Below, piece by piece: positions 48,634 through 64,000 of a stretch of 64,000 bases of DNA. Every line of letters begins with the position of its first letter. Position 1 is the first letter of the stretch. The stretch comes from Enterobacter sp. RIT418 (GTDB lineage: Bacteria; Pseudomonadota; Gammaproteobacteria; Enterobacterales; Enterobacteriaceae): the NCBI RefSeq assembly GCF_003057745.1, contig NZ_QBJD02000006.1:186001-250000 (forward strand). Direction: 5' to 3'. The position numbers and the translations under genes were made by a program. The notes beneath the pieces were generated by a model. The model saw nothing but the letters and a program-made list of their open reading frames with translations. It did not search any database and was not told the DNA's origin.

Positions 48634-48753
48634 GTGCGGCCTCACATTAAGGCGGCGCCCATGCGAAAACAACACGAAAAATTCGGCGCAGCCACAATTT
48701 CCCTGGTGTTGGCGCAGTATTCGCGCACCCCGGTTAAGCCGGGGTCATTTTTT
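48634..48753 (+). ncRNA. arcZ: ArcZ (RyhA/SraH) Hfq-binding sRNA
   Basis: An sRNA gene between elbB and arcB on the plus strand, as in E. coli. It begins GTGCGGCC. It carries the conserved core ATTTCCCTGGTGTTGGCGCA then GTATTCGCGCACCCCGG, and ends with the terminator ACCCCGGTTAAGCCGGGGT plus TCATTTTTTT. The stem overlaps the arcB stop codon. A -10 like TATCTT lies at about 48622-48627. In E. coli ArcZ activates rpoS and represses arcB-related and motility genes, and is itself repressed by ArcA. Confidence 0.9.
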
Positions 48754-51081
48754 TCTGGCATCCACCCACGCTTTTAATACCGCCACGTCGTTTTGCCACT
48801 CCTGCTTCATTTCTTCAACCCATTCACCTACGTTATCTTCCCAGGCGGGTAAATCGGGAGATTGAATCTGCTGACCGAGCTGCTGCAGATGGCGCAGGCC
48901 TACTGATCCCGCTGCACCTTTAATCTTATGCCCTTCCTCCACGATGCCCTTTTTGTCACGCGCCGTCAGGTTGGATTCCAGCACGTTCAGGTAGCCCGGC
49001 ATCATTTTTTCAAACACGGCCAGGCCGTCGGTAATCAGTTTTGGCCCCACCAGATCGATGTACTGCTCCAGCATGGCGGTATCCAATATCGTTTGAGCTT
49101 TTTCGCTATCAATAGACGTCATGGTGCTCTCCTCTTCATCACGGGTATCCCAGAACTTCTTGATCATGGCAGTCAGCGCAGGCACTGCCAGCGGCTTGCT
49201 GAGCACATCATCCATACCGGCATCAAGGTACTCTTTTTTATCCTTCAGCACGTTCGCCGTCAGCGCGACCAGCGGCGGCAGATCGTCGGCGGCGTATTTG
49301 CGGGTCAATTCGCGGGAAATGTCCAGCCCGGTCATATCCGGCAGCTGAATATCCAGCAGCACAAGGTCATATTCTCCCGGCGTAAACATCTCCAGAGCGG
49401 CTTTTCCGGTCATCGCCACATCAACGCTATTGCCCAGCTTCTCAAGCACCGAGCGCGCCACGATGACGTTAAGCTCAATATCTTCCACCAGCAGCACGTG
49501 CAGCGCCGGCAGCGGCATATCGTCATTATCGAAGGTATCCTCAACCTCTTCCGCCACCGCAGGCGCATGCACCGTCAGCGTAAAGGTTGAGCCTTTGCCC
49601 GGCAGGCTCGCTACGGTGATATCCCCGCCCATGCTCTTCGCCAGGCGTTTCGACACCGCCAGGCCAATTCCGGTGCCGGTAGCGGGCTTGCCGCCGTTGC
49701 TGTCTTTGACCTGATAATACATGGCGAAAATTTTGTCTTGTTCTTCCTGCGGAATACCGATGCCGGAGTCTTCCACCTCAAAGTGCAGCATATCGCCCTC
49801 ATCGTAGCGAATACGCACCGCTACCCGGCCGCCGTTCTGGGTGAATTTCACGGCGTTGCTGATCAGGTTCCACAGGATCTGGCGCAGGCGCGTGCCATCC
49901 GTCACCACCTTATGCGGCAGCGGAAGCGTTGGCTCCATCAGGAAGCTCAGCCCCTTTTGCTGCGCCTGGAGGCCGGACAGGTTTTCCAGGTCGGCCAGAA
50001 AACCGGTGAAATCGACCGGCTGGTTATCAAGCTGAACCTTGCGGCGCTCCATTTTATCCATGTCGATAATATCGTTGAAAATATTGCCGAGCGTTACCGC
50101 CGAGACGTGGATGGTTTTAAGGTATTTTTCCTGCTCGCCGGTCAGGTCGGTATCCAGCAGAATGCGGCTCAAGCCGACAATGCCGTTCAGGGGCGTACGC
50201 AGCTCGTGGCTAATGGTGGAAATGAAGGTCGTCTTGTCGCGGCTGGCGCGCTCAAGCGCATCCTGATAGCGTTTGCGTTCGGTAATATCGCGGCCAAAGC
50301 CCATCAGGCCGTGGCGCTTGCCCACGCGGTCATAGTACGGCACCTTGCGGATCTCGAAGCAGGCTTTGCGCCCGTCCGGATAATCCAGCCACTGCTCGTA
50401 GGTCAGCGAGACGTTATGGCGGAAGACCTTCTCGTCCGTTTCCATTACCTTGGCGGCGGCCTCTTCTGAATAGACGTCCTGCGGCTTGAGGTGGATAAGC
50501 TGCTTCTCGCTCTTGCCGGTCAGCAGTTCCATCGCCCGGTTACAGCCGGAAAACTCTTTATCTTCATTGCGGTAGAAAACGAGATCCGGAGACGCATCCA
50601 GGAAGGAGCGCAGGAAAGAGGATTGCTGCTCAAGCTGGATCTGCGTCACCTCACGCTCTTTCATCTCCACCTTCAGCTGTTCCAGCGTCGCCTGACGCTC
50701 GGCCTCCGCCTTCTCGCGGTCCGTAATCTCCTGATTCAGCTGCGCAATGTTGTCCTTCAGCTGAACGTTGAGCTTAAGGTCGCGGTCGCGCATCTCCTCC
50801 AGCTTTTCAACCAGCTTCGACAGGCGCTGGCGGGACTCTTCCAGCTGTTCAACCACCACCGAGAGGAAGTAGACGGCCCATGGGGTGATCAGCAGGCCGA
50901 AGAAGATAGAGCGGATAACGTCGATGCTTTCGACCTGGCCGTGCAGCACCATGGTGACGGCCATCTGCACGACAATCGCCAGAACCACCAGGGCCAGCGC
51001 CAGCAGCATGGAGAAACGCACCAGCCCAAGCTTCATCATCAGGTCGACGTAGTACTGGGCGAGCATTCGAATTTGCTTCAT
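48745..51081 (-). CDS. arcB: ArcB, hybrid sensor kinase of the aerobic respiration control system
   Basis: A 778-residue tripartite membrane kinase that senses quinone redox state and phosphorylates ArcA. There are two membrane helices (about 20-45 and 55-77), a coiled linker, and a PAS domain with redox Cys180 (FSGCNRAME) and Cys241 (RKACFEIRK). The phospho-His292 is in TISHELRTPLNG, receiver Asp576 in LVLLDIQLPDMTG and HPt His717 in EEGHKIKGAAGS. The start MKQIRMLAQYYVD is the family start. lptG, not yhcC, is its upstream neighbour here. Confidence 0.97.
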   Translation of the reverse strand: MKQIRMLAQYYVDLMMKLGLVRFSMLLALALVVLAIVVQMAVTMVLHGQVESIDVIRSIFFGLLITPWAVYFLSVVVEQLEESRQRLSKLVEKLEEMRDRDLKLNVQLKDNIAQLNQEITDREKAEAERQATLEQLKVEMKEREVTQIQLEQQSSFLRSFLDASPDLVFYRNEDKEFSGCNRAMELLTGKSEKQLIHLKPQDVYSEEAAAKVMETDEKVFRHNVSLTYEQWLDYPDGRKACFEIRKVPYYDRVGKRHGLMGFGRDITERKRYQDALERASRDKTTFISTISHELRTPLNGIVGLSRILLDTDLTGEQEKYLKTIHVSAVTLGNIFNDIIDMDKMERRKVQLDNQPVDFTGFLADLENLSGLQAQQKGLSFLMEPTLPLPHKVVTDGTRLRQILWNLISNAVKFTQNGGRVAVRIRYDEGDMLHFEVEDSGIGIPQEEQDKIFAMYYQVKDSNGGKPATGTGIGLAVSKRLAKSMGGDITVASLPGKGSTFTLTVHAPAVAEEVEDTFDNDDMPLPALHVLLVEDIELNVIVARSVLEKLGNSVDVAMTGKAALEMFTPGEYDLVLLDIQLPDMTGLDISRELTRKYAADDLPPLVALTANVLKDKKEYLDAGMDDVLSKPLAVPALTAMIKKFWDTRDEEESTMTSIDSEKAQTILDTAMLEQYIDLVGPKLITDGLAVFEKMMPGYLNVLESNLTARDKKGIVEEGHKIKGAAGSVGLRHLQQLGQQIQSPDLPAWEDNVGEWVEEMKQEWQNDVAVLKAWVDARKK

Positions 51082-51179
51082 AGAGGATCCCTTCACGACT
51101 ATATCGCTCAATAATACTCAAATTCGCGGCGGGGCGTTGAAGGTTATGAGAAAAAGTGCGGGATGAAACAGGAGATTAG

Positions 51180-51205
51180 CTCGCTCCCGACGAACCGGGA
51201 GCGAG
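51180..51205. terminator. Hairpin between lptG and arcB
   Basis: A perfect 10-bp stem CTCGCTCCCG/CGGGAGCGAG with a 6-nt loop, 12 bp past the lptG stop. There is no U-tract on the minus strand, so its strength as a terminator is doubtful. It may end lptFG transcripts before arcB. Confidence 0.5.
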
Positions 51206-51216
51206 AAGACGAGCCG

Positions 51217-52299
51217 TCAGGAGCGCTTAAGCAGCAGCCAGAGGCTGATCAGGAAGAAGCTGGCGCTTGGCAGCAGCGCGCCAATAATCGGCGGAATGCC
51301 GTAAACCAGCGTCAGCGGCCCAAAGATCTGATCCAACACGTAGAAAACAAAGCCAAAGCTGATACCGGTCACGACGCGCACGCCCATCGGCACGCTGCGC
51401 AGCGGACCAAAGATAAACGACAGCGCCATCAACATCATGACGGCCACGGACATCGGCTGGAAGATTTTACTCCACATGTTGAGCTGATAGCGCCCCGCAT
51501 CCTGGCCGCTCGACTTCAGATACTTCACGTAGTTGTGCAGGCCGCTGATGGACAGCGCATCAGGATCCAGCGCCACAACGCCCAGCTTGTCAGGCGTCAG
51601 GTTGGTTTTCCACGTTCCGGACACCGTCTGCGAGCCGGTAATTTGTTTCGGATCGGTCAGGTTGGACTCATCCACCTGCGACAGGCGCCACTGTTTGTTT
51701 TCAGCATCAAACTTCGCGGAAGAGGCGTGACGGACTGACTGCAGGCGGCGATCGCTGTTGAAGGCGTAAATACTCACTCCGCCCAGCTCGTCGTTACCTT
51801 TAACGCGTTCGATATACACGAAGTTGCTGCCGTCTTTCGCCCACAGGCCCTGCTGCGTCGACAGCAGCGAACCGCCGTACATCGCCTGGGCACGATAGTT
51901 ACGCGCCATCTGCTCACCCTGCGGTGCCACCCACTCGCCGATTGCCATCGTCAGAATAACCAGCGGAATAGCCGTTTTCATCACCGAGAGCGCAACCTGC
52001 ATGCGGGTAAAGCCCGACGCCTGCATCACAACCAGCTCGCTGCGCTGCGCGAGCATCCCCAGGCCGAGCAGCGCCCCCAGCAGGGCCGCCATCGGGAAGA
52101 AGATTTGCACATCTTTTGGCACGCTGAGCAGGGTATACATGCCCGCCCCTAGCGCGTCATAGCTCCCCTGTCCGGCCTTTTTCAACTGGTCGACGAATTT
52201 AATAATGCCGGAGAGCGACACCAGCATGAATAAGGTCATCATGATGGTGGTGAAAATGGTTTTACCGATATAGCGATCGAGAACGCCAAAAAGCTGCAT
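51217..52299 (-). CDS. lptG: LptG, permease of the LPS exporter
   Basis: A 360-residue inner-membrane protein with six helices and a periplasmic jellyroll-type domain. With LptF and LptB it lifts LPS out of the inner membrane. The start MQLFGVLDRYIGKTIFTTI and the helix NMWSKIFQPMSVAVMMLMAL are typical. It overlaps lptF by 1 nt. It is the first gene of the block that lies between arcB and yhcC. Confidence 0.97.
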   Translation of the reverse strand: MQLFGVLDRYIGKTIFTTIMMTLFMLVSLSGIIKFVDQLKKAGQGSYDALGAGMYTLLSVPKDVQIFFPMAALLGALLGLGMLAQRSELVVMQASGFTRMQVALSVMKTAIPLVILTMAIGEWVAPQGEQMARNYRAQAMYGGSLLSTQQGLWAKDGSNFVYIERVKGNDELGGVSIYAFNSDRRLQSVRHASSAKFDAENKQWRLSQVDESNLTDPKQITGSQTVSGTWKTNLTPDKLGVVALDPDALSISGLHNYVKYLKSSGQDAGRYQLNMWSKIFQPMSVAVMMLMALSFIFGPLRSVPMGVRVVTGISFGFVFYVLDQIFGPLTLVYGIPPIIGALLPSASFFLISLWLLLKRS

Positions 52300-53399
52300 C
52301 AGATGGCTCCTTTACGCGTAAATCGGGCACGAATTCGGCGCACTGGCACCGTGTCCCATACGTTCAATCCCACTGCCAGCAGGATATACAGGCTGTTAAC
52401 CGCCCATGTCCAGACCATCGGGTCCAGCTTACCTTTCGCACCGTTGGAACGAATCGAGGTCTGCAACAGGAAATAGACCAGGTAAAGCAGCATTGCGGGC
52501 AGCATAGACAGCACGCGTCCCTGACGCGGGTTGACCACGCTGAGGGGAACCACAATCAGTGCCATCATAAATACGGTGAATACCAGAGTGAGACGCCAGT
52601 GGAATTCCGCGCGCGCTCTGTCGGTATCGGTATTCCACAGCGTGCGCATGTCCATCTGTTCCGTATCGGTTGGGTCAAGCGCGACGGCCTGATGCCCGAT
52701 AATGGCCTGATAGTTCTGGAAATCCGTAATGCGGAAGTCGCGCAGCATCGCGGTGCCTTCGAAACGCGTGCCTTTGTTCAGCGTCACCACCTGAGAACCG
52801 TCTTTACGCTGTGAAAGCTGTCCGGAGTCAGCCACCACAACGGAAGGGCGGGCATTGCCTTTCGGGCGAAGCTGGGCAAGGAAAACGTCGTTGAAGCGGT
52901 TGCCGTTAACGCTTTCAATAAAGAGCACGGAATTGCCGTCGGTAGCCTGCTGGAACTGGCCCTGCGCGAGCGCAGCCAGGCCCGGGTTAGCTTTGGCTTC
53001 AGCCAGCACCTCATCCTGATGGCGCGACGACGCGGGCCCTGCCCACATCACATTCACGGCGGCAACAATCCCCGTGAACAGCGCCAGAATCATGGCGGCT
53101 TTGACCAGAACGGCTTTGCTTAAGCCGCAGGCATGCATCACCGTGATTTCACTTTCGGTATAGAGCTTACCCAGCGTCATCAGCAAACCGAGGAAAAGGC
53201 TTAACGGCAGGATAAGCTGCGCCATTTCCGGCACGCCTAGCCCGAGCAGGGAAAGCACCAGATTTGTTGGAATTTCGCCGTCAACCGCCGCACCGAGGAT
53301 CTTGACCAGCTTCTGACAGAAGAAGATCAGAAGAAGGATAAAGAGGATCGCCAGTTGGCTCTTGAGCGTCTCCCGCACCAGATATCTTATGATTATCAC
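52299..53399 (-). CDS. lptF: LptF, permease of the LPS exporter
   Basis: A 366-residue partner of LptG with the same six-helix plan. It starts MIIIRYLVRETLKSQLAILF. The periplasmic domain spans about residues 125-260. It is divergent from pepA over 266 bp and overlaps lptG, as in E. coli. Confidence 0.97.
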   Translation of the reverse strand: MIIIRYLVRETLKSQLAILFILLLIFFCQKLVKILGAAVDGEIPTNLVLSLLGLGVPEMAQLILPLSLFLGLLMTLGKLYTESEITVMHACGLSKAVLVKAAMILALFTGIVAAVNVMWAGPASSRHQDEVLAEAKANPGLAALAQGQFQQATDGNSVLFIESVNGNRFNDVFLAQLRPKGNARPSVVVADSGQLSQRKDGSQVVTLNKGTRFEGTAMLRDFRITDFQNYQAIIGHQAVALDPTDTEQMDMRTLWNTDTDRARAEFHWRLTLVFTVFMMALIVVPLSVVNPRQGRVLSMLPAMLLYLVYFLLQTSIRSNGAKGKLDPMVWTWAVNSLYILLAVGLNVWDTVPVRRIRARFTRKGAI

Positions 53400-53662
53400 T
53401 ATTAATACGCCCGTAAAAACCCGTCTTTTTGCTGGAAAATCGCTTGTTTCATGGCTTAAACGTCATTTATTCTCTTGAGTCGTCGAAATCATCGCTAAGA
53501 TTAAAAAACCCGGCGGATTCACGCTTCAGGACATTGTCTGACGTGTCGAAACCGTAATAACGTAAGATTAACACGAAGTCATCACAACAGCGGATATGAG
53601 TTACGAAAGGTTTCAATTCTATCTGTAGCGGCCGCCGTTGTCTTTAAGATTCAGGAGCGTAG

Positions 53663-55177
<1,515 letters not shown>

Positions 55178-55196
55178 GTCAGAACGGCAGTAAACC

Positions 55197-55232
55197 GTAG
55201 GCCGGGTAAGGCGAAGCCGCCACCCGGCTTAA
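55197..55232. repeat. REP-like palindrome between pepA and holC
   Basis: GTAGGCCGGGTAAGGCGAAG followed by CCGCCACCCGGC, a REP-type palindrome 20 bp past the pepA stop. Confidence 0.8.
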
Positions 55233-55263
55233 GCATTTAAAGTGAGCACAAGAAGCCCCATAT

Positions 55264-55707
55264 ATGAAGAATGCAACGTTCTACCTTCTGGACAACGACA
55301 CCCATCAGGACGGTCTTAGCGCCGTTGAACAGCTGGTGTGCGAAATTGCCGCAGAACGTTGGCGCGCAGGCAAGCGCGTATTGATTGCCTGTGAAGATGA
55401 ACAGCAGGCGATTCGCCTTGATGAGGCGCTTTGGGCGCGCCCGCCGGAGAGTTTTGTACCGCATAACTTGTCCGGAGAAGGCCCGCGCGGCGGTGCACCG
55501 GTAGAAATTGCCTGGCCGCAAAAACGCAACAGCAGCGCGCGCGATATCCTGATTAGCCTGCGGATAGATTTTGCAGATTTTGCCACCGCTTTCACAGAAG
55601 TGGTAGACTTTGTCCCTTACGAAGAATCCTTGAAACAGCTGGCGCGCGAACGCTACAAAGCGTACCGCCTGGCCGGTTTTAACCTGAATACGGCAACCTG
55701 GAAATAA
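55264..55707 (+). CDS. holC: HolC, DNA polymerase III chi subunit
   Basis: A 147-residue chi subunit that links the clamp loader to single-strand binding protein. It starts [20 protein letters not shown] and ends FNLNTATWK, with length as in E. coli. The stop overlaps the valS ATG by 1 nt, so they are coupled. Confidence 0.97.
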
Positions 55708-58562
55708 TGGAAAAGACATATAACCCACGCGATATCGAACAGCCGCTTTACGAGCACTGGGAACAGCAGGGCTATTTCAAGCCTAACGGCGACGAAAGCA
55801 AAGAGTCCTTCTGCATCATGATCCCGCCGCCGAACGTCACCGGCAGTTTGCATATGGGTCATGCTTTCCAGCAGACCATCATGGATACCATGATCCGCTA
55901 CCAGCGCATGCAGGGAAAAAACACCCTGTGGCAGGCGGGGACTGACCACGCGGGTATCGCGACCCAGATGGTGGTTGAGCGTAAAATTGCCGCTGAAGAA
56001 GGTAAAACCCGTCACGACTACGGTCGCGAGGCGTTCATCGACAAAATCTGGCAGTGGAAAGCGGAATCTGGCGGCACCATTACCCGTCAGATGCGCCGTC
56101 TCGGTAACTCCGTAGACTGGGAGCGCGAGCGCTTCACGATGGATGAAGGCCTTTCCAATGCCGTGAAAGAAGTCTTCGTCCGCCTGTACAAAGAAGACCT
56201 GATTTACCGCGGCAAGCGCCTGGTAAACTGGGACCCGAAACTGCGCACCGCAATTTCTGACCTGGAAGTGGAAAACCGCGAGTCGAAAGGCTCCATGTGG
56301 CACATCCGCTACCCGCTGGCCGACGGTGCAAAAACCGCAGACGGTAAAGACTATCTGGTGGTTGCCACCACCCGTCCGGAAACCCTGCTGGGCGATACCG
56401 GCGTGGCCGTTAACCCGGAAGATCCACGCTACAAAGATCTGATCGGCAAATTTGTGGTCCTGCCGCTGGTAAACCGCCGTATTCCAATCGTGGGCGACGA
56501 ACACGCCGACATGGAAAAAGGCACCGGCTGCGTGAAAATTACCCCTGCGCACGACTTTAACGACTATGAAGTGGGCCGTCGTCACGCCCTGCCGATGATC
56601 AACATTCTGACCTTCGACGGCGATATCCGCGAAAGCGCGCAGGTCTTTGACACGAAAGGCGAAGAATCTGACGTTTACTCCAGCGACATTCCGGCAGAGT
56701 TCCAGAAGCTGGAGCGCTTTGCCGCGCGTAAAGCGATCGTGGCTGCCGTTGACGCGCTCGGCCTGCTGGAAGAGATCAAACCTCACGATCTGACCGTGCC
56801 GTACGGCGACCGCGGCGGCGTGGTTATCGAGCCCATGCTGACCGACCAGTGGTACGTGCGCGCCGACGTGCTGGCGAAGCCGGCCGTTGAAGCGGTTGAG
56901 AATGGCGATATCCAGTTCGTGCCGAAGCAGTATGAAAACATGTACTTCTCCTGGATGCGTGACATTCAGGACTGGTGTATCTCCCGCCAGCTGTGGTGGG
57001 GCCACCGCATCCCGGCCTGGTATGACAACGAAGGCAACGTCTACGTTGGCCGTACCGAAGACGAAGTGCGTCAGGAAAATAACCTGAGTGCAGACGTCGC
57101 GCTGCGTCAGGACGAAGACGTGCTGGATACCTGGTTCTCCTCCGCGCTGTGGACCTTCTCTACCCTCGGCTGGCCGGAAAACACCGACGCGCTGCGTCAG
57201 TTCCACCCAACCAGCGTGATGGTTTCCGGCTTCGACATCATCTTCTTCTGGATCGCCCGCATGATCATGATGACCATGCACTTCATCAAAGATGAAAACG
57301 GCAAGCCGCAGGTTCCGTTCCACACCGTCTACATGACCGGCCTGATCCGCGACGACGAAGGCCAGAAGATGTCCAAGTCCAAGGGTAACGTTATTGACCC
57401 GCTGGATATGGTTGACGGTATCTCTCTGGAAGAACTTCTGGAAAAACGTACCGGCAACATGATGCAGCCGCAGCTGGCAGAGAAAATCCGCAAGCGCACC
57501 GAGAAGCAGTTCCCGAACGGGATTGAGTCTCACGGTACCGACGCCCTGCGCTTTACCCTGGCGGCGCTGGCCTCTACCGGCCGCGACATCAACTGGGACA
57601 TGAAGCGCCTGGAAGGCTACCGCAACTTCTGTAACAAGCTGTGGAACGCCAGTCGCTTCGTGCTGATGAACACCGAAGACCAGGACTGCGGCTTTAACGG
57701 CGGCGAGATGACCCTGTCGCTGGCGGACCGCTGGATCCTGGCCGAGTTCAACCAGACGGTGAAAGCGTTCCGCGAAGCGCTGGACAGCTACCGCTTCGAC
57801 ATCGCGGCGGGTATCCTGTACGAATTCACCTGGAACCAGTTCTGCGACTGGTATCTGGAGCTGGCGAAGCCGGTGATGAACGGCGGGTCTGAAGCAGAGC
57901 TGCGCGGCACGCGCAACACGCTGATTACCGTGCTGGAAGGCCTGCTGCGCCTGGCGCATCCGGTTATTCCATTCATTACCGAAACCATCTGGCAGCGCGT
58001 GAAGGTGATTGCAGGCATCAACGCGGACACCATCATGCTGCAGCCGTTCCCGGAATTTGACGCTGCGCGCGTTGATGAAGCCGCAGCGGCGGATACCGAA
58101 TGGCTGAAGCAGGCGATCGTTGCCGTACGTAATATTCGTGCGGAAATGAATATCGCGCCGAGCAAGCCGCTGGAACTGCTTCTGCGCGGCTGCAGCGAGG
58201 CTGCCGTTCGTCGCGTCAGTGAGAACAACACCTTCCTGAAAACGATGGCGCGCCTGGAAAGCATCACCGTGCTGCCTGCTGATGACAAAGGTCCGGTCTC
58301 CGTGACCAAAATCATCGACGGCGCAGAGCTGCTGATCCCGATGGCGGGCCTGATCGACAAAGACGCCGAGCTGGCGCGTCTGGCGAAGGAAGTGGCGAAA
58401 GTCGACGTGGAAATCGGCAAAATCGAAAGCAAGCTGGCGAACGAAGGCTTTGTCGCCCGCGCGCCGGAAGCGGTCATCGCCAAAGAGCGTGAGCGTCTGG
58501 TTGCTTTCGCAGATGCGAAATCCAAACTGATCGAGCAGCAGGCGGTTATCGCCGCCCTGTAA
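55707..58562 (+). CDS. valS: Valyl-tRNA synthetase
   Basis: A 951-residue class Ia synthetase. The HIGH motif appears as [14 protein letters not shown] (about 45-58) and the KMSKS loop in [16 protein letters not shown] (about 553). The editing domain (CP1) lies between, with [19 protein letters not shown]-like sequence at about 216-234. The C-terminal coiled coil ends EQQAVIAAL. It overlaps holC, as in E. coli. Confidence 0.98.
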
Positions 58563-58567
58563 TGCTT

Positions 58568-58599
58568 TTACCCCTTACGCTTCAGGGCGTAAGGGGTAA
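58568..58599 (+). terminator. Long hairpin after valS
   Basis: A perfect 13-bp stem TTACCCCTTACGC/GCGTAAGGGGTAA with 6-nt loop TTCAGG begins 6 bp past the valS stop. It lacks a U-tract. It may stop transcription with Rho or shield the 3' end. Confidence 0.65.
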
Positions 58600-58684
58600 C
58601 CTTCCTGAAAACTCCTCGCTTGCACTCCCCTTTCTGCGGTGCTATTAACACCAGCAATGTGTCATTTTTGTCATGAGTATGGCT

Positions 58685-59188
58685 ATGAGCGTGATTACCC
58701 CCGCCGCGACGACGATGCGTCGTCTCATTGAGCAAGACAACCCGGCGATTGCCGCCGTCATTCGCCACGTTTCTGCGGAGTACGGACTGACCGCCGACAA
58801 AGGCTACACCGTTGCCGATCCGAATCTTGACGAGCTGTACCAGCTCTACAGCCAGCCGGGCCATGCCTACTGGATCATCGAGCAGGACGGTGAAGTCGTG
58901 GGCGGCGGCGGCATCGCGCCGCTCAGCTGCAGCGAGCCGGACATCTGCGAGCTGCAAAAAATGTACTTCCTGCCCAGCGTGCGCGGACAGGGGCTGGCTA
59001 AGAAGCTTGCGCTGCAGGCGCTCGAGCACGCCCGCACGCAGGGCTTCAAACGCTGCTACCTCGAAACCACCGCCTTCCTCAAAGAGGCAATTGGCCTGTA
59101 TGAACATCTGGGCTTTGAGCATATTGACGCGCCTCTGGGCTGTACCGGCCACGTTGATTGCGAAGTCAGAATGCTGAAAAGTCTGTAA
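58685..59188 (+). CDS. yjgM: YjgM, GNAT-family N-acetyltransferase
   Basis: A 167-residue GNAT acetyltransferase whose substrate is not established. The acetyl-CoA motif [20 protein letters not shown] is at about 95-115; conserved CGIAPL-like [19 protein letters not shown] precedes it. The ATG at [14 protein letters not shown] fits the E. coli length; an ATG 12 nt upstream gives 171 residues. It is in the same orientation as valS here, and the gap to ahr is 83 bp. Confidence 0.9.
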
Positions 59189-59271
59189 GTTTCGTTACCG
59201 CCCCCTTCTGCTAAGCGACCGTAAACTGAATGCTCTACACTTTTCATTTCACACCATAAAGGGGAAGGACG

Positions 59272-60291
59272 ATGTCGAAGATAAAAAGCTACGCCGCACC
59301 GCAGGCGGGTGCAGAACTTGAGCTGTACGAGTACGACGCGGGCGAACTAAAAGCAGAAGACGTCGAGGTCCAGGTCGACTACTGCGGGATCTGCCACTCG
59401 GATCTCTCGATGATCGACAACGAATGGGGCTTTTCGCAGTATCCGCTGATTGCAGGCCACGAAATCATTGGTCGCGTCGTCGCGCTCGGCACAGCCGCAC
59501 AGGACAAAGGACTGAAGATTGGCCAGCGCGTGGGCATTGGCTGGACGGCACGCAGCTGCGGCCACTGCGACGCCTGTATCAGCGGTAACCAGATCAACTG
59601 TCTGGAAGGCGCAACGCCGACCATCATGAACAAGGGCGGTTTTGCCGATAAGCTTCGCGCCGGCTGGCAATGGGTCATCCCGCTGCCGGACAGCATTGAT
59701 ATCGAAACCGCGGGTCCGCTGCTGTGCGGCGGTATTACCGTGTTCAAACCGCTGCTGATGCACCATATCACCGCCACCAGCCGCGTAGGCGTGATCGGCA
59801 TCGGTGGCCTGGGCCATATCGCCATTAAGCTGCTGCATGCTATGGGCTGCGAAGTCACGGCCTTCAGCTCGAACCCCGCCAAAGAGAAAGAAGTGCTGGC
59901 GATGGGCGCAGACAAAGTCGTGAACAGCCGCGATCCTCAGGCGCTCAACGCGCTGGCGGGCCAGTTTGATCTGATCATCAATACCGTAAACGTCGATCTC
60001 GACTGGCAGCCGTACTTCGAAGCGCTGGCCTACGGCGGTAACTTCCATACCGTGGGTGCCGTGATGAAGCCGCTGCCGGTTCCGGCGTTTACGCTGATCG
60101 GCGGCGATCGCAGCGTTTCCGGCTCCGCGACGGGCACGCCGTACGAGTTGCGCAAGCTGATGAAGTTTGCCGGACGCACCAAAGTGGCGCCGACCACCGA
60201 ACTGTATCCAATGTCGAAGATCAACGAAGCTATCCAGCACGTGCGCGACGGTAAAGCCCGTTACCGCGTAGTGTTGAAAGCGGATTTTTGA
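59272..60291 (+). CDS. ahr: Ahr (YjgB), zinc-dependent NADPH aldehyde reductase
   Basis: A 339-residue medium-chain dehydrogenase/reductase that reduces broad-range aldehydes in E. coli. Catalytic zinc ligands are Cys and His in [10 protein letters not shown] (about 38-47) and AGHEIIG (about 62). The structural zinc set is in [15 protein letters not shown] (about 96-110). The cofactor fold is [16 protein letters not shown] (about 172-187). A good ribosome-binding site AAGGGGAAGGACG precedes the ATG. Confidence 0.95.
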
Positions 60292-60334
60292 TGTGAGTTT
60301 GCCGGGGAATGTGCGGCCTGCTGCCCGCATCCCA

Positions 60335-60356
60335 GCCCTCTCCCCTGGGAGAGGGC
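60335..60356. repeat. CTCTCCC palindrome between ahr and dhaKL
   Basis: A perfect inverted repeat GCCCTCTCCC/GGGAGAGGGC with a 2-nt centre. It is the same family as the element at 3945-3974, again between convergent genes. Confidence 0.65.
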
Positions 60357-60364
60357 GCAAACAC

Positions 60365-60391
60365 TAAAACGGTAACGGTTGTTACCGTTTT
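60365..60391. terminator. Bidirectional terminator between ahr and dhaKL
   Basis: A perfect 11-bp stem AAAACGGTAAC/GTTACCGTTTT with loop GGTT, and A/T-rich ends on both strands, lies between the convergent ahr and dhaKL genes. Confidence 0.88.
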
Positions 60392-61941
60392 GCTTCTATC
60401 ATGGCATTAAACACTTCTGCCACCGCAACTGCCCCCGGATCGGTCACCCCGTCCAGATTCTCTTTATTCACATACGACGAACGCCCCGCGCCCGCTTTTT
60501 CCATTTTCGCCGTCGCGTCAGCGCCTGCCTGTGCCGCCTTTGCCGCCGCCTTAAGATCGCCTTTCTGCAGCGCCTCAAGCGCCGGCTGCAGCGCATCGAT
60601 CAGGGTACGATCTCCGAGATCGGCCCCACCGTAGTGCTTCATCTGCGCCAGCCCGCCCAGCAGCGCGTCCGCCAGCGGCTTGCCGTCTTGCAGCTTCTGC
60701 CCGGCCGCCGTAAAGAAGATCGACATCAATACTCCGCTCGATCCCCCCATCACGGTCGCCAGACGTTCGCCCACCAGCAGGAGCAGCTTTGGCAGGTCGT
60801 TAAGCGGCAGCTGCTTTTTCTCCAGCCGCTGCGCAATGTCCCGCGCGCCTTGCGCAAAGGTTGACCCCGTATCCCCGTCGCCCACTTTGGCATCCAGCGC
60901 GTTCAGCCTGTTCTCAAGATCGAGCAGCGTCTGCGTCACCGCCCGCACGCCTGCAGCAACCTGCGCATTCTCCGACGGCGTAAACTCCACGCTGTCGTGA
61001 ATTGCGGTATGGGGCAGCGTTTTCACCGGCGAAAATGCAACGGGCTTTTGCCAGCCCAGCGTCTCAACGCTTTCAGTAAGCGCCTTCTCAAAGGCGTCAT
61101 TAAGCTTCAGCAGGGAAAGCGAAAACCCTTTCATATCCAGCGAGCTCACCAGCGGCGCGGGGCCAATCAGGTAGGCGATCTGCTCTTTGAGGGCCGAATG
61201 CGCCAGCTCTTTGGTCAGCAGCGCCATCTCCAGCGCCGAAACGCCGCCCAGATTGTTAATCAGCACCGCGAAGCGACCCTTACCCGCCTGTTCCATAAGC
61301 GGCTTCACCAACGTCTCGATAATCCGCCTGCTGTTTTGCGTATCCACAACGGAAGCCCCCGGCTCCCCGTGGATGCCCAGACCAAGCTCAACGTGGCCTT
61401 TTTTGATGCGCCCCTCTTCATCATCGCTTCCTGGAAGATTGCAGGTTTGCATAGCCACGCCCAGGCTCCAGAGGTTATCGCACGCCTGCCGCGCGATATC
61501 CCGAACCTCATTCAGCGACTTGCCGCGCTCTGCCGCATCGCCCGCAATTTTATGCACCAGCGCCGTACCGGCAATGCCGCGCGGCTGCTTGTTGTCCGGC
61601 AGGGCAATATCATCCGCGACGATGACCATTTCGACCTTCAACCCGTAGCGCTTGGCTTTTTCAGCCGCCAGGCCGAAGTTAAGGCGGTCACCGGTGTAGT
61701 TTTTGACAATCAGCAGACAGCCACGGTCGCCCGTTACCGCCACGATGGCATTCAGCACCGCATCCACGCTCGGCGAGGCGAACAGATCGCCACACACCGC
61801 CGCCGTGAGCATCCCTTTCCCTACAAAACCGGCATGTGCCGGTTCGTGACCAGAGCCACCGCCGGAGATGACCGCCACGCGGCTTTTGTCCCAGTCGCCG
61901 CGCGCCACCACGCGAATTGCAGGGTCGATATCAAGCTTCAC
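60382..61941 (-). CDS. dhaK: ATP-dependent dihydroxyacetone kinase (DhaK-DhaL fusion), start codon damaged
   Basis: A single-chain ATP-type dihydroxyacetone kinase like that of Citrobacter freundii. The DhaK part (about 1-300) has ISGGGSGHEPAHAGFVGKG and the substrate-binding His in GLGIHGEPGASV. The DhaL part (about 325-519) has the nucleotide loop NALDAKVGDGDTGSTFAQG and GGSSGVLMSIFF. From GTG 61941 it makes 519 residues, lacking about 29 conserved N-terminal residues that remain in frame upstream behind ATA instead of ATG. The protein may be made poorly or be inactive. No glycerol dehydrogenase or dhaR lies near it. Confidence 0.88.
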   Translation of the reverse strand: MKLDIDPAIRVVARGDWDKSRVAVISGGGSGHEPAHAGFVGKGMLTAAVCGDLFASPSVDAVLNAIVAVTGDRGCLLIVKNYTGDRLNFGLAAEKAKRYGLKVEMVIVADDIALPDNKQPRGIAGTALVHKIAGDAAERGKSLNEVRDIARQACDNLWSLGVAMQTCNLPGSDDEEGRIKKGHVELGLGIHGEPGASVVDTQNSRRIIETLVKPLMEQAGKGRFAVLINNLGGVSALEMALLTKELAHSALKEQIAYLIGPAPLVSSLDMKGFSLSLLKLNDAFEKALTESVETLGWQKPVAFSPVKTLPHTAIHDSVEFTPSENAQVAAGVRAVTQTLLDLENRLNALDAKVGDGDTGSTFAQGARDIAQRLEKKQLPLNDLPKLLLLVGERLATVMGGSSGVLMSIFFTAAGQKLQDGKPLADALLGGLAQMKHYGGADLGDRTLIDALQPALEALQKGDLKAAAKAAQAGADATAKMEKAGAGRSSYVNKENLDGVTDPGAVAVAEVFNAMIEAKR

Positions 61942-62028
61942 GAGATTACCGTGCGGCGCGGAGATCAGTATGCCTTCAATGGCGTCGTTGACCAGCTGTT
62001 TGCGGTCGTTAAAGAAGAATCTGGATAT
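61942..62028 (-). other. Conserved N-terminus of dhaKL, preceded by ATA instead of ATG
   Basis: In frame with dhaKL this encodes SRFFFNDRKQLVNDAIEG and then ILISAPHGNL, which match the N-terminus of DhaK proteins. The codon at 62028-62026 is ATA where ATG is expected. GGAAAG lies 5 nt upstream, as a proper ribosome-binding site. A TAA stop lies 7 codons before it with no ATG, GTG or TTG between. A single base change would restore ATG. Confidence 0.82.
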
Positions 62029-62165
62029 AGCTTTCCAAAATTTTGTTTACCGTATGCAAAAGCATAGCCTGCGCTGGATAACGCGCCGCAAAGTCAGGAA
62101 TTTACGCAGACATTTTGCCGTCGGGTTGCCTATACTGCACCCATGTCAAAGTGAGGACGCGCATC

Positions 62166-63668
62166 ATGAGTACACCCTTGTTAATTGCCCGGACGCGGGA
62201 AAAAGAGCTGTTTTTACTGCCCGCGATGGCAAACCGCCACGGCCTGATCACCGGCGCGACGGGGACGGGGAAAACCGTCACCCTACAGAAGCTGGCAGAG
62301 TCGCTTTCAGAGATTGGCGTACCGGTATTTATGGCCGATGTAAAAGGCGATTTAACCGGCGTAGCTCAGGAAGGCGCGGCGTCGGAAAAACTGCTCGAGC
62401 GCCTCAAAAACATTGGTATTACGGACTGGACTCCCCACAACAACCCGGTTGTGCTATGGGACATTTTTGGCGAGAAAGGCCACCCTGTTCGCGCGACCGT
62501 CTCCGACCTTGGCCCGCTTCTTCTCGCCCGTCTTCTGAACCTGAATGAGGTGCAGTCCGGCGTGCTGAACATCATCTTTCGCATCGCCGACGATCAGGGG
62601 CTGCTGCTGCTTGATTTCAAAGATCTGCGCGCCATTACGCAATATATCGGGGATAACGCTAAATCCTTCCAGAACCAGTACGGCAACATCAGCAGCGCCT
62701 CGGTGGGTGCTATTCAGCGCGGGCTGCTGACGCTGGAGCAACAGGGTGCCGCGCACTTCTTCGGCGAGCCGATGCTGGATATCAAAGACTGGATGCGCAC
62801 CGACGGTAGCGGCAAAGGCATCATTAATATTCTCAGCGCGGAAAAGCTCTATCAGATGCCCAAGCTCTATGCGGCAAGCCTGCTGTGGATGCTGTCTGAA
62901 CTGTACGAACAGCTGCCGGAAGCGGGCGATCTGGAAAAGCCAAAGCTGGTCTTCTTCTTTGACGAAGCGCATCTGTTGTTTAACGATGCGCCTCAGGTGC
63001 TGCTGGATAAGATTGAACAGGTCATCCGCCTGATTCGCTCCAAAGGCGTGGGCGTTTGGTTCGTTTCGCAAAACCCATCGGATATTCCTGACAACGTGCT
63101 CGGCCAGCTCGGTAACCGCGTTCAGCATGCCCTGCGCGCCTTTACGCCAAAAGATCAGAAAGCGGTGAAAGCCGCCGCGCAAACCATGCGGGCCAATCCC
63201 GCGTTTGATACCGAGGCCGCGATTCAAGCTCTGGGGACAGGTGAGGCGCTCATCTCCTTCCTGGACGCAAAAGGCAGCCCGTCGGTGGTCGAACGCGCAA
63301 TGGTCATTGCCCCCTGTTCAAGAATGGGGCCCGTGACCGACGATGAACGCAACGGCCTGATCAACCACTCGCCGGTTTACGGCAAATACGAAGATGAAGT
63401 GGATCGGGAGTCGGCGTTTGAGATACTGCAAAAAGGGGTGCAGGCGGCTACCGAATCTCAGGACGCGCCGGCTGCCAAAGGTGAATCAGTGGCCGTGGAC
63501 GACGGCATTCTCGGTGGGTTGAAAGATATTCTCTTCGGCACCACCGGGCCGCGCGGCGGCAAGCGCGACGGCGTGGTACAAACGATGGCGAAAAGCGCGG
63601 CGCGGCAGGTCACCAACCAGATTGTGCGCGGCATGCTGGGAAGCCTGTTAGGCGGCCGTCGTCGGTAA
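62166..63668 (+). CDS. yjgR: YjgR, DUF853 HerA-like P-loop ATPase
   Basis: A 500-residue protein of the DUF853/HerA-FtsK ATPase group, with unknown role. Walker A is [16 protein letters not shown] (near 27-42), Walker B is [13 protein letters not shown] (near 262-275) and an arginine-rich RGGKRDG motif is near the end. The start is [15 protein letters not shown], preceded by GTGAGGAC. It ends GSLLGGRRR and overlaps the tail of yhcC by 21 bp on the opposite strand. Confidence 0.95.
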
Positions 63669-64000
63669 ATGCGGACCCCACGGGCGGCCCAGCGCCGAGC
63701 CCTGAACGCCGTGTTCGTGCAGATAGCGGTCGATTTCCAGCATCCCCGTCCAGCGGTTTTCACACCAGAGCGGTGCCAGAAGCGTGGGGCGGCGGGCGCT
63801 GGCGGAGATGCGGTGATAGACGATCTCCGGCGGCGTGTGGCGAATCATCTCGCCTGCCGTCACGGTGTACTCATCGAGTTCGATGCCGCTTAGCCGCCCC
63901 GCTTCCCAGGCCTTCGCCATAATGCTGCCTTTCACAATGTGCAGCGGGTGGAGCTTGATGCCGTCCACACCGGTTTCGACCACTCTTTCCAGCGTGTCGA
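63648..64000 (-). CDS. yhcC: YhcC, radical SAM protein (partial; N-terminus outside window)
   Basis: Only the C-terminal 117 or so codons are present. The sequence [20 protein letters not shown] and [18 protein letters not shown] then QGSALGRPW fit E. coli YhcC. In E. coli the protein ends a few residues after GRPW. Here it continues GPHLPTTAA, with the last seven codons and stop lying antisense to the 3' end of yjgR. It is a TIM-barrel radical SAM protein of unknown substrate. arcB is its usual neighbour but lies 12.5 kb away. Confidence 0.92.

What the first reader, a model, noticed from the sequence alone, without database searches (positions are those of the whole stretch)
51120..63670. 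A 12.5-kb core-gene block lies between arcB and yhcC
The sequence directly shows arcB, then lptG, lptF, pepA, holC, valS, yjgM, ahr, dhaKL, yjgR, then yhcC. In E. coli K-12 arcB and yhcC are adjacent, while lptF, lptG, pepA, holC, valS, yjgM, yjgR and ahr are about a quarter of the chromosome away. Both edges are therefore visible in one window. These are essential genes (valS, lptF, lptG), so this is a relocation or genus-level rearrangement rather than decay. I cannot tell whether it is shared by the whole genus, is strain-specific or is an assembly chimera.
Basis: partly seen in the sequence, partly recalled or inferred. Interest (0 to 1): 0.7.

Follow-up and report, generated by a model that had tools for sequence, protein, structure and literature searches.

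The report
Relocated essential-gene block marking one genus
In the Enterobacter-Lelliottia group, a 12.5-kb stretch of essential housekeeping genes has moved to the opposite chromosome arm at about the same distance from the replication origin, leaving a clean gap behind, most simply explained by two successive chromosome inversions around the origin in the group's common ancestor.

Summary
In detail: arcB and yhcC are separated by lptG-lptF-pepA-holC-valS-yjgM-ahr-dhaKL-yjgR. It is neither a chimera nor a duplication. The same genome holds the emptied ancestral site (leuX-DUF-miaE-rraB-argF). In the window's GTDB genus the left junction is contiguous in 61 of 61 genomes, yjgM-ahr in 60 of 61, the right junction in 58 of 61, and the vacated site is matched in 60 of 61. 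Of 198 sampled family genomes, only the window's and one genus-mate have arcB-lptG in one piece; of 5,426 E. coli genomes, none.

Old and new sites lie on opposite arms in 33 of 34 chromosomes, with a median difference in origin distance of 38 kb and gene direction relative to the fork kept. An excised circle reinserted would give the same product and is not excluded. The kind is known (symmetric inter-replichore translocation); six text searches found no description of this instance.

The parts
48745..51111 (-). arcB, left (origin-distal) flank of the insertion point
   Evidence: NCBIfam NF008302, 1454 bits, cut-off 838; arcB followed by yhcC in 20 of 20 arcB loci fetched from other genera, three of them with 1.4-3.9 kb between
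51112..51216 (.). new junction arcB|lptG (intergenic; holds a terminator-like hairpin behind lptG)
   Evidence: contiguous in 61 of 61 genus genomes; fold of 51160-51225, minus strand, -23.9 kcal/mol, z -2.5
51217..59188 (.). sub-block B: lptG- lptF- pepA+ holC+ valS+ yjgM+
   Evidence: NCBIfam names for lptG, lptF, pepA, holC, valS; GNAT family by Pfam for yjgM; same order and strands as in E. coli, which has yjgN in addition, and in other ancestral-type loci
59189..59271 (.). new junction yjgM|ahr; keeps about 75 bp of the ancestral upstream region of ahr
   Evidence: alignment with 12 ancestral leuX-ahr spacers; contiguous in 60 of 61 genus genomes
59272..63668 (.). sub-block A: ahr+ dhaKL- yjgR+
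   Evidence: NF047908 Ahr 546.6 bits, cut-off 470; TIGR02361 glycerone kinase 551.2 bits, just under its cut-off 574.95, first residues missing; Pfam HerA_C 832.6 bits; same order in Citrobacter L013 and others
63648..63668 (.). new junction yjgR|yhcC: convergent 3' ends overlapping by 21 bp; the YhcC tail is read antisense through the end of yjgR
   Evidence: overlap of 21 or 24 bp in 21 of 23 derived loci that hold both genes, lost in 2; YhcC tails; contiguous in 58 of 61 genus genomes
63648..64000 (-). yhcC, right (origin-proximal) flank of the insertion point, runs out of the window
   Evidence: full gene and gltB-like frame in L101

Best explanation
The block is native core DNA moved once, in the common ancestor of the GTDB genus that holds the window (Enterobacter, with Lelliottia-named strains). 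The most likely route is two successive inversions spanning oriC, each with its two breakpoints at nearly the same distance from oriC on the two arms. Inversion 1 broke arcB|yhcC on one arm and lptG|yjgR on the other, joining arcB to lptG and yjgR to yhcC. Inversion 2 broke yjgM|DUF and ahr|leuX, turned the origin region back, and joined yjgM to ahr and DUF to leuX. The net effect carries both halves of the block to the mirror position on the other arm, each inverted separately, which is why their order is swapped in the block's own frame. The breaks lie between genes or at the last codons of yhcC, so the genes, the nearby upstream regions of ahr and leuX, the origin distance (dosage) and the fork-relative strand were kept. 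Shown: ancestral and derived orders, vacated site, genus-wide sharing, one clade, near-mirror distances, strand conservation. Inferred: that two inversions, and not one excised circle, were the physical steps, and that replication forks or recombination made them.
For: Ancestral order leuX-ahr-(dhaKL)-(yjgR)-lptG-lptF-pepA-holC-valS-yjgM-(DUF)-(miaE)-rraB in E. coli (which lacks dhaKL, DUF and miaE in the locus read) and in other genera; own genome has leuX-DUF-miaE-rraB-argF without the block. Signed-permutation search: the observed order needs 2 reversals and has exactly one minimal path, the two origin-spanning inversions. Old and new sites lie on opposite sides of mnmG (next to oriC, recalled) in 33 of 34 own-genus chromosomes; in these 33 the origin distances differ by 5.7-170 kb, median 38 kb. 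A random site would fall that close to the mirror point with chance about 0.016 at the median and 0.07 at the largest difference (computed after the fact). The block's fork-relative strand follows one rule in 34 of 34 derived and 20 of 20 other chromosomes. In 20 tabulated chromosomes of other genera arcB and lptG are on opposite arms in 14 (median difference 42 kb), and on the same arm 70-171 kb apart in 5, so the lptG locus has changed arms elsewhere too; one, G153, has lptG far off. The same breakpoint scar in 21 of 23 derived loci and one clade, support 0.969, point to one event. Published surveys: origin-symmetric inversions are the predominant large structural variation (PMC9584773, passages); inter-replichore moves tend to keep origin distance and strand and rarely break operons (PMC4889656, section 20).
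Against: No genome with only the first inversion was found. No shared word longer than 9 bases links the four junctions today, no more than shuffles give, so no recombination substrate is visible. The same four junctions arise from excision of a circle and reinsertion. PMC4889656 reports few inter-replichore moves between E. coli and Salmonella. In G241 both sites are on one arm, 1,006 and 422 kb from mnmG, presumably a later inversion. The orientation of the origin region is not constant: 29 of 34 own-genus chromosomes have it one way and 5 the other, so further origin inversions must be added to the two proposed. In 5 of 20 other-genus chromosomes, and on one contig each in two drafts of the genus nearest in the tree with weak support (G093, G214), arcB and lptG share an arm; if the stem ancestor was like that, the two-inversion path need not be the shortest.
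Confidence: 0.6

Rival explanations
1. Excision and reinsertion of a circle: the block left as a circle closed at yjgM-ahr, leuX and DUF were joined, and the circle was opened between yjgR and lptG and inserted between arcB and yhcC.
For: Gives exactly the observed circular permutation AB to BA and the same four junctions in one excision and one insertion. An integrase gene sits next to leuX in the own genome and in several relatives, so DNA comes and goes there.
Against: The circle would carry essential genes (essentiality of valS, lptF and lptG recalled) without a known replicon; the near-mirror position and kept strand would be coincidence or selection; no integrase or recombinase among the block genes; no edge repeats; the integrase lies on the 3' side of leuX, whereas the block lay on its 5' side.
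Confidence: 0.27
2. Fork-coupled translocation: both replication forks, being at the same distance from oriC, exchanged ends in one replication round, moving the block between arms without two separately fixed inversions.
For: Near-mirror distances and kept strand; concurrent forks are proposed recombination hotspots (PMC4889656, section 20; PMC9584773, passages).
Against: Needs four breaks in one round; sequence data cannot tell it from two inversions close in time.
Confidence: 0.1
3. Assembly chimera or strain-specific rearrangement.
For: None found.
Against: 61 of 61 genus genomes at the left junction, 60 of 61 at yjgM-ahr, 58 of 61 at the right junction, vacated site matched in 60 of 61, single-contig chromosomes among them.
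Confidence: 0.01
4. Horizontal acquisition of a foreign copy followed by loss of the native one.
For: The native site is empty.
Against: The sequence upstream of ahr at the new site aligns with the ahr side of the native leuX-ahr spacer, and the leuX side stayed behind. The tree puts the derived loci in one clade but was made from block proteins only and cannot by itself exclude this.
Confidence: 0.02

Closest known systems
Symmetric inter-replichore translocation (Khedkar and Seshasayee 2016, PMC4889656)
   Same: Block on the other replichore at nearly the same origin distance, fork-relative strand kept, genes and operons intact
   Different: Here one event is resolved to gene-level breakpoints, carries an internal AB to BA permutation, and is shared by a whole genus; the main text of that paper holds no word beginning with Enterobacter
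Replication-associated structural rearrangement, X-shaped origin-symmetric inversion (D'Iorio and Dewar 2022, PMC9584773)
   Same: Each inferred step is one such inversion
   Different: Those are attributed to repetitive elements (passages); here two inversions are combined and no repeats are visible at the junctions
Genomic island at leuX
   Same: The vacated site borders leuX with an integrase gene next to it
   Different: The moved DNA is core genes on the 5' side of leuX, without integrase or edge repeats

Membership tests
Symmetric inter-replichore translocation | block on opposite replichores in old and new position | tested here: met
   opposite sides of mnmG in 33 of 34 derived chromosomes; exception G241
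Symmetric inter-replichore translocation | origin distance nearly unchanged | tested here: met
   difference 5.7-170 kb, median 38 kb, in 33 chromosomes of mean length 4,807 kb
Symmetric inter-replichore translocation | fork-relative strand and operons kept | tested here: met
   strand rule holds in 34 of 34 derived and 20 of 20 other chromosomes; breaks between genes or at the last codons of yhcC
Product of two origin-spanning inversions | order reachable by two origin-spanning reversals from the E. coli-like order | tested here: met
   one minimal path of two reversals
Product of two origin-spanning inversions | extant single-inversion intermediate | tested here: inconclusive
   none seen among 198 family genomes sampled for arcB-lptG (match list truncated) or in 61 genus genomes; an extinct intermediate leaves no trace
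Product of two origin-spanning inversions | inverted repeats at breakpoints | tested here: inconclusive
   none at the present junctions; palindromic repeats of REP type (name recalled) lie in some relatives' arcB-yhcC and yjgR-lptG spacers
Mobile element or genomic island | own integrase/transposase or flanking direct repeats | tested here: not met
   none among the block genes; no edge repeats
Assembly artefact | junction absent from independent assemblies | tested here: not met
   present in 61 of 61 genus genomes

The most novel reading that the evidence does not exclude
Essential genes valS, lptF and lptG (with holC) left the chromosome as a circle without its own replicon and were recaptured near the mirror position on the other arm, perhaps while both forks were there. 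That would be a natural circular-intermediate transposition of essential core genes, fixed at the origin of a whole genus.
Probability: 0.15. Interest if true: 0.6.

Novelty: new member of a known kind. Interest (0 to 1): 0.35.

Why it matters
It is a clean rare genomic change that marks the Enterobacter-Lelliottia group: one PCR-sized junction (arcB-lptG) separates it from strains named Enterobacter that keep the ancestral order (kpr-6 L018, BIGb0383 L019, ENT03 L020, Bisph1 L050). It also gives a gene-level example of how essential genes can change chromosome arm while keeping origin distance, strand and nearby upstream sequence, and the permutation makes the inversion-versus-circle question testable if an intermediate is found.

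Tried and rejected
Tested and set aside: assembly chimera, second copy at the ancestral site, strain-specific event, genomic island (see rivals and membership rows). Looked for a repeat that could have mediated the inversions: longest shared words between the four junctions are 6-9 bases, as in shuffles; the repeat finder gave 8 direct two-copy families and 2 inverted pairs, 18-37 nt and imperfect, none joining the block's edges. Looked for the arcB-lptG junction in other genera in 198 family genomes: the match list there was truncated, so the judgement rests on match counts and best matches per genome; other-genus genomes with a single match had E-values no better than 1e-81, against 0 for the two with the full junction. 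A PADLOC scan of yjgR gave only weak HerA-type matches and was not pursued.

Six text searches listed no paper whose title or abstract start describes arcB-lptG adjacency or this move; they cover open-licence PMC papers only. Seen of papers: PMC4889656 opening, section list, passages and sections 20 and 21; passages of PMC12863080, PMC9584773 and PMC9716735; the rest as search listings.

The tree does not fix the sister genus: the next node has support 0.26. It used 79 of 81 loci given (L036 and L183 dropped for incomplete genes), after L011, L034, L048 and L151 had been left out by hand. That the genus includes Lelliottia is inferred from Lelliottia sp. WAP21 (L054) grouping with L179 from genus-mate G229.

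Origin distances: an earlier table of 14 own-genus chromosomes was replaced, on rechecking, by 34 of the 35 own-genus genomes searched for mnmG (G001 left out: its sites are on two contigs), which brought in the exception G241. Of the 27 other-genus genomes, 20 are tabulated; the other 7 (G030, G033, G053, G134, G138, G149, G186) had no arcB match in the truncated list. G047 and G217 have low completeness, G181 a split mnmG; they were kept.

Full report
What is there. The window reads mtgA-elbB-arcB, then lptG, lptF (minus), pepA, holC, valS, yjgM, ahr (plus), a fused dhaKL (minus), yjgR (plus), then yhcC (minus) and, on the same contig beyond the window, a gltB-like frame (gltB, mtgA and elbB named from recall). 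Family models confirm arcB, lptG, lptF, pepA, holC, valS and ahr above their cut-offs. dhaKL matches glycerone kinase just below the cut-off, its first residues being absent from the called frame. yjgR is HerA-like and yjgM a GNAT acetyltransferase.

Ancestral state. In E. coli (L089) the order is leuX, ahr, yjgR, lptG, lptF, pepA, holC, valS, yjgN, yjgM, rraB, argF. In relatives from other genera it is the same, with dhaKL between ahr and yjgR in many and DUF and miaE between yjgM and rraB in many; dhaKL, yjgR, yjgN, DUF or miaE are undetected in some, and some loci have insertions. In 20 of 20 arcB loci fetched from other genera yhcC follows arcB, three with 1.4-3.9 kb between.

Vacated site. 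The window's own genome has, on another contig, integrase-leuX-DUF-miaE-rraB-argF with nothing of the block. So the block moved and was not copied. Alignments place the leuX-side break inside the old leuX-ahr spacer: about 100 bp upstream of leuX stayed, about 75 bp upstream of ahr went with the block.

Permutation. Call the two halves A (ahr-dhaKL-yjgR) and B (lptG to yjgM). The old order is A then B; the new one is B then A, strands unchanged in the block's own frame. A simple cut-and-paste would not do this. On the chromosome map, with oriC between the two sites, the change reads Y,B,A to -B,-A,Y, where Y is the origin region. A search over reversals finds a minimum of two and only one path: an inversion with ends at arcB|yhcC and lptG|yjgR, then one with ends at yjgM|DUF and ahr|leuX. 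Excising a circle and reinserting it gives the same result and is the main rival.

Distribution. In the window's GTDB genus the arcB-lptG junction is in one piece in 61 of 61 genomes. The yjgM-ahr junction is contiguous in 60 of 61; the exception, G250, is an incomplete draft. The yjgR-yhcC junction is contiguous in 58 of 61: G007, G250 and G260 match only on the yhcC side; of these the loci of G007 and G260 were read, and G007 lacks dhaKL and yjgR, G260 lacks yjgR. The vacated site is matched in 60 of 61, in three of them (G217, G244, G252) as neighbouring pieces with short gaps. In the wider family 142 of 198 sampled genomes had a match, and only the window's genome and one genus-mate had the junction in one piece (list truncated). 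Of 5,426 E. coli genomes 5,375 had a match and none a place covering 80% of the junction query.

Named strains. The derived order is in Enterobacter genomosp. O (L009), Lelliottia nimipressuralis (L010) and Lelliottia sp. WAP21 (L054); a short Enterobacter MAG contig (L011) shows its part from pepA to yhcC. Strains called Enterobacter kpr-6, BIGb0383, ENT03 and Bisph1 keep ahr-dhaKL before lptG (in BIGb0383 yjgM was not detected).

One event. In a tree of five block proteins the 23 derived loci used form one clade (support 0.969); its place among other genera is not resolved. The scar is shared: yjgR and yhcC overlap tail to tail by 21 or 24 bp in 21 of 23 derived loci holding both genes; the two exceptions have gaps of 4 and 17 bp. 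YhcC thus carries a tail read antisense through the end of yjgR (tails were printed for 19 of the 24 derived loci scanned there).

Origin symmetry. With mnmG as the marker of oriC (their adjacency is recalled), old and new sites are on opposite sides in 33 of 34 own-genus chromosomes. In these the new site is 481-681 kb and the old one 511-707 kb from mnmG, and the difference is 5.7-170 kb, median 38 kb. A random site would lie as close to the mirror point with chance about 0.016 (0.07 for the largest difference). The exception, G241, has both sites on one arm. The block keeps its direction relative to the fork in 34 of 34. In 20 chromosomes of other genera arcB and lptG lie on opposite arms in 14 (median difference 42 kb), on one arm 70-171 kb apart in 5, and in G153 on one arm 961 kb apart. 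So the two sites were already near mirror positions in most relatives tabulated, and the lptG locus has changed arms elsewhere, which favours origin-spanning inversions as the vehicle. Against an easy reading: the origin region itself is turned in 5 of 34 own-genus chromosomes relative to the other 29, and the other genera are mixed (8 of 20 one way, 12 the other), so more origin inversions than the two proposed have happened.

No visible trigger. No integrase or transposase is in the block, and no repeats or shared words join its edges. Some relatives have REP-like palindromes (name recalled) in the arcB-yhcC and yjgR-lptG spacers, which could have served as inverted repeats in the ancestor; this is a conjecture.

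What is known. Symmetric inter-replichore translocations that keep dosage, strand and operons are described (PMC4889656, sections 20 and 21). Origin-symmetric inversions are reported as the predominant structural variation (PMC9584773, passages), and inversions and translocations as enriched near the origin and driven mainly by mobile elements (PMC12863080, passages), for which I see no sign here. Six text searches listed no paper on this instance. It is a new, well-resolved member of a known kind.

Noticed in passing
window 62026-62028 (-): dhaKL has ATA where the 22 derived loci printed have the ATG start, so the kinase may be poorly expressed in this strain.
   Followed up: partly
G006, G007, G163, G223, G241 against the other own-genus chromosomes: The orientation of the oriC region (mnmG strand) relative to the arms differs: 29 of 34 one way, 5 of 34 the other, which points to recurrent inversions inside the arcB-oriC-argF interval.
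   Followed up: partly
window 58563-58672 and derived loci L054, L178, L179, L190: The valS-yjgM gap is a variable slot: 110 bp in the window, 1.1-1.6 kb in some derived loci, yjgN in E. coli.
   Followed up: no
L176 (G007) and L190 (G260): Secondary losses in the moved block: G007 lacks dhaKL and yjgR, G260 lacks yjgR.
   Followed up: partly
L100 1693-2424 (-): A 243-aa protein between leuX and miaE matches no Pfam family at E 1e-5; in relatives it is 43-59% identical or undetected.
   Followed up: no
L018, L019, L020, L050: Strains named Enterobacter (kpr-6, BIGb0383, ENT03, Bisph1) lack the rearrangement and fall outside the derived clade, suggesting misassigned names.
   Followed up: partly
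G127, G036, G046, G090, G106; drafts G093, G214: arcB and lptG lie on the same arm or contig 70-171 kb apart, with lptG to rraB in ancestral order where read (L145, L146), so this locus has changed arms elsewhere.
   Followed up: partly
G241: Old and new sites both on one arm, 422 and 1,006 kb from mnmG, the only such case among 34 own-genus chromosomes; a later asymmetric inversion or an assembly error.
   Followed up: no
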